Translations under genes and position numbers: made by a program | Assembly (NCBI RefSeq): GCF_009617585.1 | Contig: NZ_WIXI01000046.1 | Span: 186,001-250,000 of the forward strand | Source: Endobacterium cereale | Lineage (GTDB): Bacteria; Pseudomonadota; Alphaproteobacteria; Rhizobiales; Rhizobiaceae | Length of the DNA: 64,000 nucleotides | Direction of reading: 5' to 3' | Notes under the pieces: generated by a model | The model's input: only the letters and a program-made list of their open reading frames with translations | Database searches by the model: none | Told to the model about the DNA's origin: nothing | In this document: positions 9,925 through 56,309 of the stretch, in pieces | How positions within the stretch are numbered: position 1 is the stretch's first letter | Layout: the number at the start of each line of letters is the position of its first letter

Positions 9925-10111
9925 CGAATAAACCCTCTGGCGAACCGGACATCACAGCGGCGACGGAACGGCCACGCACATCTTCCCCTGCAAAATACTC
10001 AATCCATCCGGTCAAACGGAAGTCACAACAGGGTGAGGACCACATACGTGATCAGTTACCCTGTCATGTTTCCTGATGAGTTGCCATGAATTGCTGAAGA
10101 TTCCAAGAACG

Positions 10112-26643: not shown

Positions 26644-26750
26644 GGGAAATGCTCCGGTTTGCAATCCAGAGCATAAAATGCGGCTGGCGCCCGAGAGTTC
26701 CCCCGCTGGCGATCCACCAGGCAATTTTCCGGAAACTGTCGTCACGACAA

Positions 26751-31322: not shown

Positions 31323-31603
31323 CACAACTTCCTTCTTCGTTTCCGGGTGCCCGGAAACGTCGGGTCTTTGACCGCTGAAAACAAGACGCCAAGGCGCGCG
31401 CAAAGCCAAAAAGCACCCGAGGGCGCAACGCGCTGTCGGATGTTGACCTCCGGGCTCAATATGTCGGCCCCGGTCGGCGGCTCCAAGTCGTGACTTGTCA
31501 GCAGATTTTGGGGCTTAAACAGGAAATGGAGCGCAGAGTCAAGGTGTGGCGGGTGTCCGCCATGTTCGGCGACGCTTGAAGCCTGTGCTGCGGCTTCTTA
31601 TAG

Positions 31604-32707
31604 ATGACGAATGAACCGTCGCAATTTTTTCAAATGACCGGTCTTGCTGCCATCGCCGCGCTTGCCGGCGGGTTCACGGCTAGGAGCGCCATGGCTGGCA
31701 ACAAGTATTATACGGGTCCCGTCTCGGATCATTTCGACGGCACCCACTTTTTCAATCCGAATGGCGAGGAACCGGCAGGCACGCTTGATCTCCTGCGCTG
31801 GAAGCTCGGCAACGGCAATATTCCCTGGCCTGACACATTTGCCAGCCCGTTTCCGCAGGCCATGCCGGAAACCCGCGTCAGCGGCGATCGCATCGTCGTC
31901 ACCATGGTCGGGCATGCCTCGATGCTCATCCAGGTCGCCGGTCTCAACATCCTCACCGATCCCGTCTGGTCGGAGCGCACCAGCCCATTCAACTGGACCG
32001 GCCCGAAACGCGTCAACCCGCCCGGCATCCGCATCGGCGATCTGCCGCCCATCGATATCGTGCTCGTCACCCACAATCACTACGACCATCTCGATCTCGA
32101 AACCCTGTGGGTGTTGCAGGGGCGCGACCAGCCGCATTTCATCACCCCTCTTGGCAATGACGCGATCATTCGCACACGCGTGCCGGATGCGAAAATCACG
32201 GTGATGGATTGGGGCGGAAATGAAAGTGTTGCGCCCGGCGTTATCTTCCATTGCGAGCCCTGCCACCACTGGTCGGCACGTGGCTTGAACGACCGCCGGC
32301 AGGCGCTCTGGGCCGCTTTCGCGTTCGAAACGCCGGCCGGCAAGATCTATCATATCGGCGATACCGGCTTTCACAGCGGCATCAATTATCGCGCGGCGAA
32401 GGAAAAACATGGCGGTTTTCGCCTCGCCAACCTGCCGTTCGGCGCCTATGAGCCGCGCTGGTTCATGAAAGCCCAGCATCAAAACCCGGAAGAGGCGGTG
32501 GAGGGTATGGCGCTTTGCGGCGCCGCCTTCGTTGCCGGCCATCATTGGGGCACCGTGAAACTTACCAATGAAGGCATCGAACAGCCGGTGGAAGCACTGC
32601 ATGCCGCGCTCGACAGCCGCAAAATTTCCCGCCATCGTTTCCGTCCGATGCGACCGGGCGAAGTTTTCGATGTGCCGGCGTCCGCTTCCGCAAACACTCC
32701 CACTTGA
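31604..32707 (+). CDS. Metallo-beta-lactamase-fold hydrolase (UlaG/NAPE-PLD-like), Tat signal probably broken by frameshift
   Basis: The 367-residue frame has the MBL-fold metal motif THNHYDHLD near residue 151, a later metal histidine in CEPCHHWSAR, the bridging aspartate in HIGDTGF and a final metal histidine in AGHHWGT; LTDPVWSERTSPFNW is characteristic of the NAPE-PLD/UlaG-like group. Substrate unknown. As written it begins MTNEPSQFFQMTGLAAIAALAGG. In another frame, the ATG at 31611 reads MNRRNFFK and then stops, exactly where this frame continues with MTGLAAIAALAGG. Joining the two gives a textbook twin-arginine signal peptide (to ARSAMA), so one base seems to have been lost near 31625-31634. 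The haem oxygenase gene follows after 52 bases. Confidence 0.85.
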   Translation: MTNEPSQFFQMTGLAAIAALAGGFTARSAMAGNKYYTGPVSDHFDGTHFFNPNGEEPAGTLDLLRWKLGNGNIPWPDTFASPFPQAMPETRVSGDRIVVTMVGHASMLIQVAGLNILTDPVWSERTSPFNWTGPKRVNPPGIRIGDLPPIDIVLVTHNHYDHLDLETLWVLQGRDQPHFITPLGNDAIIRTRVPDAKITVMDWGGNESVAPGVIFHCEPCHHWSARGLNDRRQALWAAFAFETPAGKIYHIGDTGFHSGINYRAAKEKHGGFRLANLPFGAYEPRWFMKAQHQNPEEAVEGMALCGAAFVAGHHWGTVKLTNEGIEQPVEALHAALDSRKISRHRFRPMRPGEVFDVPASASANTPT

Positions 32708-32759: not shown

Positions 32760-33347
32760 ATGCTGATCGAACTCGAACGCCCGGCCGAATCCACCCGTAT
32801 CCAGCGACTGAAGGCACTGACCACGGGGACCCACGACACGCTGGATAAGCGCATCATGCGGGCAGAACCGTTTGCCAGCCGCGAGCGTTACGCCCTGTTT
32901 CTCGCGGTCCAGCATCATTTTCACGGCGATGTCGCGCCGCTTTATGCATCGGCAGACCTCAATGCAAAACTCCCGGGCCTCGCCGATCGTTGCCGTCTGG
33001 AAGCGCTGCGTCAGGATATCGTCGATCTCGGCGGGACAGCAGAAACGCTTGCCTCCACGACCGGGCCTTTGAGCCCGGCTGCAGCACTCGGTTGGGTTTA
33101 CGTCGCCGAAGGCTCCAACCTCGGCGCCGCCTTTCTGCGCAAGGAAGCGATGAAACTTGACCTGTCCGACGATTTTGGCGCGCGTCACCTTGCCGGTCAT
33201 CCGGAAGGCCGTGGCCTTCACTGGCGCAATTTCGTGGCCGCCTATAACGACCTGCCGCTTTCGGAAGCAGAAGAGATCGACGCTGCCGAGGGCGCCAAGG
33301 CCGCGTTCCGGCGTGTGCATGGGCTGGTGGAGAAGATTTTCGGGTAA
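32760..33347 (+). CDS. Biliverdin-producing haem oxygenase
   Basis: A 195-residue haem oxygenase-fold protein. The proximal histidine lies in TTGTHDTLDK near residue 25 and the distal helix has GWVYVAEGSNLGAAF. It opens haem to biliverdin, CO and iron. Relatives include BphO (chromophore supply for bacteriophytochromes) and HmuO/HemO (iron release). No phytochrome, haem transporter or Fur-box-like site is obvious beside it, so which role applies is open. Confidence 0.87.
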   Translation: MLIELERPAESTRIQRLKALTTGTHDTLDKRIMRAEPFASRERYALFLAVQHHFHGDVAPLYASADLNAKLPGLADRCRLEALRQDIVDLGGTAETLASTTGPLSPAAALGWVYVAEGSNLGAAFLRKEAMKLDLSDDFGARHLAGHPEGRGLHWRNFVAAYNDLPLSEAEEIDAAEGAKAAFRRVHGLVEKIFG

Positions 33348-48427: not shown

Positions 48428-48448
48428 AATCACAAGAGGAGCAATTTG

Positions 48449-49162
48449 ATGAATACGCCTCGCTTCGGCTACAATTCCTCCGTCCAGTCCCGCGCGGATT
48501 TCGACGAGGGCCTGCGCCAGCATATGCTGCGCATCTACAACTACATGGGTCTCGGCCTTGTCATCACCGGCCTCATCGCCTTCGTCGTCGGCTCGACGCC
48601 GGCGCTGTACGTGCCGATCTTCTCCACCCCGCTCAAGTGGGTGGTGATGCTGGCGCCGCTCGCCTTCGTGTTCTTCTTTTCGTTCAAGATCCAGTCCATG
48701 TCGGCGGCCTCCGCCCAGATGACCTTCTGGATCTTCTGCGCCGTGATGGGTCTGTCGCTCGCTTCCGTGTTCCTCGTGTTCACCGGCGCCAGCATTGCCC
48801 GCACCTTCTTCATCGCCGCCACCATGTTCGGCGCGACCAGCCTCTACGGTTACGTCACCAAGCGTGACCTCACCAAGCTGGGCTCGTTCATGATCATGGG
48901 TCTGATCGGTGTGATGATCGCCTCGGTCGTCAACATCTTCCTCGGCTCCAGCGCCCTGCAGTTCGCTGTCTCGGTCATCGGTATCGTGGTCTTCCTCGGC
49001 CTGACCATGTGGGACACGCAGAACATCAAGCAGCAGTATGCCGAAAACTTTGACCAGGAGAGCCAGCAGAAGATGGCCGTCATGGGCGCGCTCTCGCTCT
49101 ACCTGAACTTCGTCAACATCTTCCAGCTGCTGCTGAACTTCACCGGCCAGCGCGAAGAATAA
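48449..49162 (+). CDS. Bax inhibitor-1/YccA family membrane protein (second of two)
   Basis: A 237-residue, seven-helix BI-1 protein. It aligns along its whole length with the gene at 7057-7791, sharing the KWVVMLAPLAFVFFFSF versus RWVVMLAPIALVFFLSF helix and the NIFL...SSAL segment. An ATG at 48449 follows GAGGAG. It is directly downstream of the anti-sigma gene, so it may be part of that regulon and act at the membrane in stress. No ybhL-type leader is possible here because the gap is only 21 bases. Confidence 0.93.
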   Translation: MNTPRFGYNSSVQSRADFDEGLRQHMLRIYNYMGLGLVITGLIAFVVGSTPALYVPIFSTPLKWVVMLAPLAFVFFFSFKIQSMSAASAQMTFWIFCAVMGLSLASVFLVFTGASIARTFFIAATMFGATSLYGYVTKRDLTKLGSFMIMGLIGVMIASVVNIFLGSSALQFAVSVIGIVVFLGLTMWDTQNIKQQYAENFDQESQQKMAVMGALSLYLNFVNIFQLLLNFTGQREE

Positions 49163-49189
49163 GACCGAGCGAAACAAGGAGTATCCTTC

Positions 49190-49855
49190 ATGGACCAGAA
49201 CGACCGCCATGCAATCGACGGCCTGTTCGGTAAACTGAAGCAGGTGGAAGGCCAGACCGGACCACGGGATGGCGAGGCCGAAACCTTCATCAACCAGCGC
49301 GTCGCATCACAGCCGGCAGCGCCCTATTTCATGGCACAGACGATCGTCGTGCAGGAACAGGCGCTTGAAGCTGCCCAGCGTCGGATCGAGGAACTGGAAC
49401 ACCAGGCCTCGGCACGACCGGCCGGCGGCGGCGGGTTTTTCTCCAGCATGTTCGGCAGCAATAGCCAGCCGCGTCAGCAGCCCGCCAATACCGCTGCCTA
49501 TCGCGGTGGCGCACCGGCGACAGCTGGAGCCTACGGCAATCAGGGTCATGCCCAGAACGCCTATGCTGATCCCAATGGTCAAGCGGACGGGCAGCAGGGC
49601 GGACAGTCGAGCGGCCCATGGGGTCGCCAGGGTGCCGCGCAGCGCGGCCCCATGGGCGGTGGCGGCGGCTTTCTGGCCGGTGCCGCACAGACAGCCATGG
49701 GCGTCGCCGGCGGCGTGCTCATCGGCAATGCCATCATGGGCATGATGGGCGGCAACGAGGCGCAGGCGGCGGAAACGCCGGCCCCTGAACCGGCACAGCC
49801 GGCCGAAGATGCCGATACCGGAATGGATGACGGCGGCGACGACATGGATTTCTGA
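49190..49855 (+). CDS. DUF2076 domain-containing protein
   Basis: A 221-residue protein. The first ~70 residues are helical and coiled-coil-like (DRHAIDGLFGKLKQVEGQ, QTIVVQEQALEAAQRRIEELE); residues ~75-165 are Gly/Gln/Ala-rich and disordered; then GGGFLAGAAQTAMGVAGGVLIGNAI, a glycine-zipper-like helix, and an acidic tail DDGGDDMDF. These parts are the DUF2076 layout; function unknown, though glycine-zipper segments suggest membrane or envelope contact. It follows the BI-1 gene by 27 bases and is probably co-transcribed. Confidence 0.85.
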   Translation: MDQNDRHAIDGLFGKLKQVEGQTGPRDGEAETFINQRVASQPAAPYFMAQTIVVQEQALEAAQRRIEELEHQASARPAGGGGFFSSMFGSNSQPRQQPANTAAYRGGAPATAGAYGNQGHAQNAYADPNGQADGQQGGQSSGPWGRQGAAQRGPMGGGGGFLAGAAQTAMGVAGGVLIGNAIMGMMGGNEAQAAETPAPEPAQPAEDADTGMDDGGDDMDF

Positions 49856-56080: not shown

Positions 56081-56172
56081 AGCCCAACTTTGAGAGTCCG
56101 GCACTGACGATCATCACGACGCAGTTGCAACCGCTTGCCAAGATCGCAGGCGACGACTAAATCTTTCACCGC

Positions 56173-56259
56173 TCTAACGGGGTGCTGCATGCAAATGCGG
56201 CTGAGAGGCTTTGCCAACCCGCGGAACCTGATCCGGCTAACACCGGCGGAGGGATTAGA
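56173..56259 (+). promoter_or_regulatory. TPP riboswitch controlling thiBPQ
   Basis: Carries the Thi-box hallmarks: GGGGTGC, GCGGCTGAGAGG, AACCTGATCCGG and TAACACCGGCGGAGGGA. P1 arms TCTAA (56173) and TTAGA (56259) close the element. It ends 50 bases before thiB. No terminator follows, so translation control is likely. Confidence 0.95.
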
Positions 56260-56309
56260 CGGCTCATCACCAGCGCCCTATTCCCAAATATCGAATTGAG
56301 GAGGCGCCG

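What the first reader, a model, noticed from the sequence alone, without database searches (positions are those of the whole stretch)
31604..31670. One-base shift hides a twin-arginine signal in the MBL-fold hydrolase
In the frame beginning at 31611 the sequence encodes MNRRNFFK and then a stop. The hydrolase frame continues at 31634 with MTGLAAIAALAGG and ends its hydrophobic run in ARSAMA. Adding one base in the T6-C-A3 run would join them into NRRNFFK-MTGL..., a classic Tat signal. As written the protein starts with the non-signal peptide MTNEPSQFFQ. That points to a recent single-base deletion in a homopolymer, or a sequencing error.
Basis: partly seen in the sequence, partly recalled or inferred. 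Interest (0 to 1): 0.6.

Follow-up and report, generated by a model that had tools for sequence, protein, structure and literature searches.

The report
Frameshifted export signal, spare internal start
In this rhizobium-like bacterium a one-base difference from its relatives breaks the export tag of a lipid-hydrolase-like enzyme, but a second start site hidden inside the tag's gene, which the relatives keep too, probably still makes the enzyme inside the cell.

Summary
In detail: MNRRNFFK-stop begins at 31611 and the hydrolase frame (31604-32707) starts with MTNEPSQFFQ. In 52 other genomes of the genus, 47 homologues carry an in-frame Tat signal M(N/K)RR; the window sits in a supported group with three of them. 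Mutation or sequencing error cannot be settled without reads; of eight single-base gaps that separate the window from all three closest relatives, this is the only one inside a gene as far as I could judge.

The unexpected part is an internal start. ATG 31691, at the signal/mature junction (AMA-GNKYY), is preceded by AGGAG. All 47 Tat-bearing relatives keep that ATG and a purine-rich Shine-Dalgarno-like stretch through several codon pairs; rare AGA/AGG encodes this Arg in 46 of 47, against 31 of 960 at other conserved Arg sites. Three Tat-less relatives have their ATG there. I infer that the gene normally makes an exported and a cytosolic form, and that the window has lost only the exported one. 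PA2699 of Pseudomonas aeruginosa is a precedent. No expression data were available.

The parts
31576..31604 (+). sigma70-like promoter TTGAAG (31576-31581), 17 nt, TATAGA (31599-31604), 6 nt before ATG 31611
   Evidence: same hexamers, spacer and distance in L124, L126, L128, L129 (in some as second-best scan hit), similar in L015, L022, L117; one search's stricter scan did not list it; the close relatives L003 and L004 lack a clear -10 there
31604..31633 (+). MTNEPSQFFQ, N-terminus of the longest ORF; probably not translated
   Evidence: none of 52 genus loci has it; its ATG overlaps the -10-like hexamer
31611..31637 (+). Tat n-region MNRRNFFK followed by TGA; remnant of the Tat signal peptide
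31635..31637 (+). site of the one-base gap relative to relatives (Trp codon in 46 of 47 Tat-bearing homologues); also creates an ATGA stop/start overlap at 31634-31637
31637..31690 (+). hydrophobic and c-region of the former Tat signal, now in frame with the downstream ORF only
   Evidence: no window-specific substitution in this region
31682..31686 (+). AGGAG, internal Shine-Dalgarno-like sequence, 4 nt before ATG 31691
31691..32707 (+). 338-aa mature enzyme from internal ATG (MAGNKYY...), NAPE-PLD-like metallo-beta-lactamase-fold hydrolase
   Evidence: Pfam PF12706 E 4.9e-32; PDB 4qn9 NAPE-PLD E 2.6e-46; 38 synonymous versus 7 nonsynonymous window-specific changes
32072..32089 (+). HNHYDH, metal-binding HxHxDH motif, intact

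Best explanation
The gene encodes a NAPE-PLD-like metallo-beta-lactamase-fold hydrolase that in this genus normally has two starts. An upstream AUG without a Shine-Dalgarno sequence, probably at or near the mRNA 5' end (leaderless), gives a Tat precursor for export. An internal AUG at the signal/mature junction, with a Shine-Dalgarno sequence written into the codons of the signal peptide's c-region, gives a cytosolic enzyme. In this genome one base is missing in the Trp codon after the RR motif, so the upstream start yields only MNRRNFFK while the internal start and the enzyme frame are untouched. The cell, if the sequence is right, has lost the exported form and kept the cytosolic one. Shown from sequence: the split signal, its derived state, conservation of the internal ATG and SD-like stretch at nucleotide level, an intact enzyme frame with few amino-acid changes. 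Inferred: use of the internal start, the leaderless mRNA, export of the relatives' proteins, and that the base change is real.
For: In-frame Tat signal in 47 of 52 other genus loci; window in a set of 4 rows with 3 Tat-bearing sisters, SH-aLRT 98. Internal ATG in 47 of 47, with codon pairs AGG-AGC/T 20, AGG-GGA 13, GGG-AGA 10, AGA-GGC/T 3, CGA-GGA 1: the amino acids change, the purine-rich SD-like stretch stays. AGA/AGG at this Arg in 46 of 47 versus 31 of 960 at 23 other conserved Arg columns. Mean anti-SD energy -7.5 kcal/mol versus -3.3 for synonymous recodings and -0.4 at the upstream ATG. Among 5 conserved Met columns only this one departs from synonymous expectation (z -2.1; others -0.6 to +0.6). 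Codons ARSAM rank 4th of 362 windows for synonymous constraint. Tat-less relatives L120, L121, L122 have their ATG at the homologous position with a similar purine stretch. Enzyme part: 38 synonymous versus 7 nonsynonymous window-specific changes (sisters 33:12, 38:20, 37:13). TatC is present in the genome.
Against: No expression, proteomic or TSS data. SD-like stretches before internal ATGs are not rare in these genes: 55 of 354 other ATGs reach the median energy of this site, and one conserved column (VEGM) is stronger. Tested gene by gene, only 30 of 47 reach p<0.05 against synonymous recoding, and all rows are related; in the Tat-less L120, L121, L122 the same test gives p 0.07 to 0.17. 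The 4-nt spacing is short. The site is not predicted to be very open (unpaired fraction 0.29 in the window; 0.34 versus 0.27 for recodings in relatives). Shinella relatives keep a Tat signal but lack the SD (L036) or the Met (L040). In S. meliloti metA, an in-frame AUG2 with SD-like triplets did not initiate outside its native context (PMC9373788, abstract and passages). The closest relatives lack a clear -10 at the proposed leaderless promoter. A sequencing error is not excluded.
Confidence: 0.6

Rival explanations
1. Assembly or sequencing error: the organism has the intact Tat signal and nothing is lost. The conserved internal start would still stand. (Not exclusive with the main reading of the genus.)
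For: Draft assembly of 51 contigs; a single base; no window-specific substitution in the signal region (0 against 4, 2 and 4 in the sisters), as expected if it is still coding or only just lost. The window also differs from all three relatives by single-base gaps in short T runs near 9928 and 56209, which are non-coding but would also fit occasional miscalls.
Against: The gap is in a pair of identical bases, not a long homopolymer. Of 8 sites where the window has the same single-base gap against all three relatives, the other 7 lie between or upstream of ORFs as far as I could judge; random miscalls should mostly hit genes. Tat signals have been lost in other members of this family.
Confidence: 0.35
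2. The gene is starting to decay: with its export signal gone the enzyme is useless and the frame will be lost.
For: Loss of a signal normally kept; one match only in the genome.
Against: The enzyme frame is full length with the metal motif intact, and window-specific changes are 38 synonymous to 7 nonsynonymous. If the event is very recent this test has little power. Naturally Tat-less homologues persist (36 of 129 tree rows).
Confidence: 0.15
3. A -1 ribosomal frameshift on the in-frame heptamer T_TTT_TTC (31625-31631) rescues a fraction of the Tat precursor, giving MNRRNFFQ-MTGL.
For: The heptamer lies in the right frame just before the stop, and the -1 product would be a plausible Tat signal.
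Against: The heptamer follows from Phe-Phe codons after a codon ending in T: it is also in L003, L004, L005 and L018, whose signals need no shift, and in only 4 of 47 relatives. No stimulatory element was looked for.
Confidence: 0.05
4. The SD-like stretch in the signal codons slows elongation (a pause that helps targeting or folding) and is not a start.
For: Nucleotide-level conservation beyond the peptide fits any contact of the mRNA with 16S rRNA.
Against: The ATG at fixed distance is kept in 47 of 47 although that position of the signal varies in Tat-bearing homologues outside the genus (F in L040 and L087, N in L043, Q in L044), and Tat-less relatives L120-L122 have their ATG exactly there.
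Confidence: 0.15

Closest known systems
PA2699 of Pseudomonas aeruginosa (PMC4899797; passages read)
   Same: One gene, two in-frame AUGs: the upstream one gives a functional Tat signal, the downstream one a form without it; the Tat signal has been lost in some related species.
   Different: PA2699 is an amidohydrolase-3 (YtcJ-like) protein with a canonical RBS at the upstream AUG and two forms detected from a plasmid. Here it is an MBL-fold enzyme, the upstream AUG has no SD, the internal AUG lies at the signal/mature junction with codon-level evidence of selection, and the loss is a one-base shift.
[quoted passage not shown] the human enzyme, species recalled)
   Same: Sequence homology over 261 residues, E 2.6e-46; HNHYDH, HW, GDTG and HWGT motifs aligned.
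   Different: Bacterial; substrate unknown; Tat-type N-terminus in most genus relatives.
metA of Sinorhizobium meliloti, AUG1/AUG2 (PMC9373788; abstract and passages read)
   Same: Rhizobial gene with two in-frame AUGs close to the 5' end, in which the internal one is used in the native context.
   Different: Riboswitch-controlled; no change of localisation is described in the passages read.

Membership tests
Tat signal peptide | twin-arginine n-region in one frame with a moderately hydrophobic h-region and an AxA site | tested here: not met
   Window: RR motif and h-region are in different frames. 47 of 52 genus relatives have RR and h-region in one frame. No Tat predictor was available.
Tat signal peptide | Tat-dependent export | not testable with these tools
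   Only the presence of TatC in the genome was checked.
NAPE-PLD-like MBL-fold hydrolase | homology to NAPE-PLD with HxHxDH and further metal ligands | tested here: met
   NCBIfam equivalog cut-offs for PRK00685 and L-ascorbate 6-phosphate lactonase not reached
NAPE-PLD-like MBL-fold hydrolase | phospholipase D activity on N-acyl phosphatidylethanolamine | not testable with these tools
   needs an enzyme assay
Alternative-start dual-localised protein (PA2699 type) | two in-frame starts, one with and one without the signal, in intact relatives | tested here: met
   sequence level only:
Alternative-start dual-localised protein (PA2699 type) | both forms made in the cell | not testable with these tools
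   no expression data
Programmed -1 frameshifting gene | slippery heptamer conserved where a shift is needed | tested here: not met
   heptamer in 4 of 47 relatives, which need no shift
Pseudogene | disrupted frame and relaxed constraint | tested here: inconclusive
   N-terminal frame split, but enzyme frame intact with 38 synonymous to 7 nonsynonymous window-specific changes

The most novel reading that the evidence does not exclude
A rhizobial genus keeps a Shine-Dalgarno sequence inside the codons of a Tat signal peptide so that one leaderless mRNA gives both an exported and a cytosolic lipid hydrolase; this built-in second start lets lineages drop export in a single step, and the window genome has been caught just after that step.
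Probability: 0.35. Interest if true: 0.65.

Novelty: new variant of a known kind. Interest (0 to 1): 0.42.

Why it matters
Bacterial proteins given two cellular addresses by two start codons were little documented when PA2699 was described; its authors thought it could be the first (PMC4899797, discussion passage). Here the second start can be read from codon choice across 47 species, so it can be looked for in other exported proteins by sequence alone. The window also gives a concrete test of how a protein changes compartment during evolution: an internal start makes loss of the signal survivable.

Tried and rejected
Homopolymer slippage as the cause: rejected, T6 and A3 are identical in L003-L005 and L018. 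Programmed -1 frameshift: heptamer present but not conserved. A second copy in the genome: none at E<=0.001.

General assembly trouble, three screens. One search listed 25 apparent frame breaks among 803 ORFs with a hit, many of them overlapping ORFs on opposite strands; I did not resolve them one by one. One search kept ORFs conserved in three relatives (348; 297 with a window hit; about 47 non-overlapping intervals): 6 had under 93% coverage, three through an N-terminal or window-edge difference, two C-terminal, and one (G030_222, window 48926-49293) is an ORF whose gap lies between two + strand ORFs. That screen is blind to short N-terminal breaks: it did not flag the hydrolase itself. So one search listed all frame-changing gaps at DNA level against the three relatives: 23 sites with a gap against all three; at 8 (7899, 9928, 13704, 13777, 25616, 31636, 39721, 56209) the same single-base gap against each. 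By the ORF table and alignments of 7899, 9928, 523 and 56209, all of these but 31636 lie between or upstream of ORFs; 13704, 13777, 25616 and 39721 were judged from the ORF table alone. Among the other 15 sites, 23238 and 26702-26714 fall where ORFs on both strands overlap and were not resolved.

Exact DNA pattern of the internal start searched in 297 family genomes, of which 5 are of this genus: 2 matches, G000 and G005, both in this gene, so it is no widespread motif (the pattern covers one codon-pair type only). Papers: searches listed nothing that I followed up; one search gave one general paper (PMC11955535, passages); one search gave 89 papers, 20 listed, none opened; one search gave PMC3616915 and PMC9373788 (abstract and passages); one search gave PMC4899797 (passages).

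Rows dropped or set by hand: L147 (second, distant copy in G003) was not counted among genus loci. For the tree, L051 had no anchor motif, 129 of 133 rows were used (short or identical ones left out), the Tat state of L054 and L069 was set to absent by hand and nine rows were set to unknown. In one search pairs over 93% codon-identical were left out. The 16S 3' end used for the Shine-Dalgarno energies is recalled, not taken from this genome. The tree is a quick one without bootstraps.

Full report
WHAT IS THERE. The window lies in a 6.1-Mb draft genome (51 contigs). The longest frame, 31604-32707, encodes 367 aa beginning MTNEPSQFFQMTGLAAIAALAGGFTARSAMAGNKYY; in another frame ATG 31611 reads MNRRNFFK and stops at TGA 31635-31637. 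The body is an MBL-fold enzyme: Pfam Lactamase_B_2 E 4.9e-32 and NAPE-PLD of the PDB at E 2.6e-46, with HNHYDH and the later HW, GDTG and HWGT motifs aligned. It is divergent from an SRP54 (ffh) gene and followed after 52 bp by a heme oxygenase gene. The best named homologues are from Neorhizobium.

THE FRAMESHIFT IS DERIVED. The protein was sought in 57 genomes of the genus (own included): 53 have it. Of the 52 others, 47 encode, in one frame, M(N/K)RR, then Trp in 46 of 47, and the hydrophobic run ending in AMA. L120, L121, L122, L123 and L146 have no Tat signal. None of the 52 has the MTNEPSQFFQ start. A quick tree of 129 homologues (enzyme part only) puts the window in one set with L003, L004 and L005, all Tat-bearing, at SH-aLRT 98.

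MUTATION OR ERROR. No reads are available. My first screen for frame breaks in the window was too blunt at gene ends to flag even this gene. At DNA level, 23 sites have a frame-changing gap against all three of G030, G046 and G013, and 8 have the same single-base gap against each. Of these 8, 31636 is the only one inside a gene as far as the ORF table and alignments tell; the others lie between or upstream of ORFs, one of them in a TPP riboswitch (two further regions, 23238 and 26702-26714, were not resolved). Random miscalls should mostly hit coding DNA, so this favours real indels; but two of the non-coding gaps are in short T runs, which miscalls would also hit. The signal region shows no window-specific substitution (sisters: 4, 2, 4), the enzyme part 38 synonymous and 7 nonsynonymous (sisters 33:12, 38:20, 37:13). 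This fits a very recent loss, or an error; I favour a real change only moderately.

THE INTERNAL START. At the signal/mature junction the window reads GCT AGG AGC GCC ATG GCT GGC AAC: AGGAG, 4 nt, ATG 31691. In all 47 Tat-bearing genus relatives the ATG is kept, and the codon pair two before the ATG is AGG-AGC/T (20), AGG-GGA (13), GGG-AGA (10), AGA-GGC/T (3) or CGA-GGA (1). The peptide changes (RS, RG, GR) but a Shine-Dalgarno-like purine stretch remains. Controls: AGA/AGG makes up 46 of 47 here and 31 of 960 at 23 other conserved Arg columns; anti-SD pairing averages -7.5 kcal/mol against -3.3 for synonymous recodings, -0.4 at the upstream ATG and -3.9 at 354 other internal ATGs, of which 55 are as strong as the median here; of five conserved Met columns only this one departs from synonymous expectation; ARSAM ranks 4th of 362 five-codon windows for synonymous constraint, the first three being overlapping windows at PRWFM. 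Gene by gene 30 of 47 are below p 0.05, and the rows are related, so the strength lies in the repeated codon solutions, not in the count.

TAT-LESS RELATIVES. In L120, L121 and L122 the ATG near the conserved NxYY is the homologous one, with CGAGG or AAGAGG before it; L123 and L146 have other ATGs nearby. On the whole tree the Tat state needs at least 11 changes, in the genus 3 including the window (gain and loss cannot be told apart by count). The residue at this place varies in Tat-bearing relatives outside the genus (F, N, Q), so Tat cleavage alone does not demand Met; Shinella L036 keeps the Met without the SD and L040 has Phe.

THE UPSTREAM START. ATG 31611 lies behind TTGAAG-17-TATAGA-6, and the same arrangement precedes the ATG in L124, L126, L128 and L129, with variants in others; L003, L004 and several near relatives have no clear -10 there, and the stricter scan did not list the window's site. 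The relatives' upstream ATGs have on average no SD; that of the window was not scored and none is seen by eye. Leaderless mRNAs are established in S. meliloti (171 mapped start sites; PMC3616915, abstract and passages). If this is the promoter, ATG 31604 is upstream of the transcript and MTNEPSQFFQ would be a gene-caller's artefact.

HOW IT WORKS, AND HOW SURE. Most likely the genus makes a Tat precursor from the upstream AUG and a cytosolic enzyme from the internal AUG; the window keeps only the second (0.6 for the whole reading; my estimates for its parts: derived gap about 0.97, functional internal start about 0.7, real mutation about 0.6). A further possible start, ATG 31634 in the ATGA overlap created by the gap, would keep the hydrophobic stretch without RR; not tested. 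Predicted openness of the internal site is unremarkable.

KNOWN AND NEW. PA2699 of P. aeruginosa is the same principle with experimental evidence of two forms and loss of the Tat signal in some species (PMC4899797, passages). New here are a different enzyme family, an SD written into signal-peptide codons across a genus, and a natural frameshift that separates the two products. That I found no report of this case rests on searches of one open-access library only.

Noticed in passing
   Followed up: no
window 31634-31637: The one-base gap creates an ATGA overlap of the MNRRNFFK stop with an in-frame ATG, an arrangement typical of translational coupling (recalled).
   Followed up: no
hydrolase protein alignment columns 284-289 (EPRWFM): Strongest synonymous constraint in the gene across the genus (rank 1 of 362 windows), cause unknown.
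   Followed up: no
window 56168-56271, + strand; gap near 56209: TPP riboswitch (Rfam RF00059, 65.6 bits) in which the window lacks one T of a T4 run that G030, G046 and G013 share.
   Followed up: partly
window 48926-49293, - strand: Apparent frame break of an ORF conserved in three relatives; the gap lies between two + strand ORFs (48446-49162 and 49190-49855), so probably not a gene break.
   Followed up: yes
window 32760-33347: Heme oxygenase gene (PF01126, E 1.4e-19) 52 bp downstream of the hydrolase, possibly co-transcribed.
   Followed up: partly
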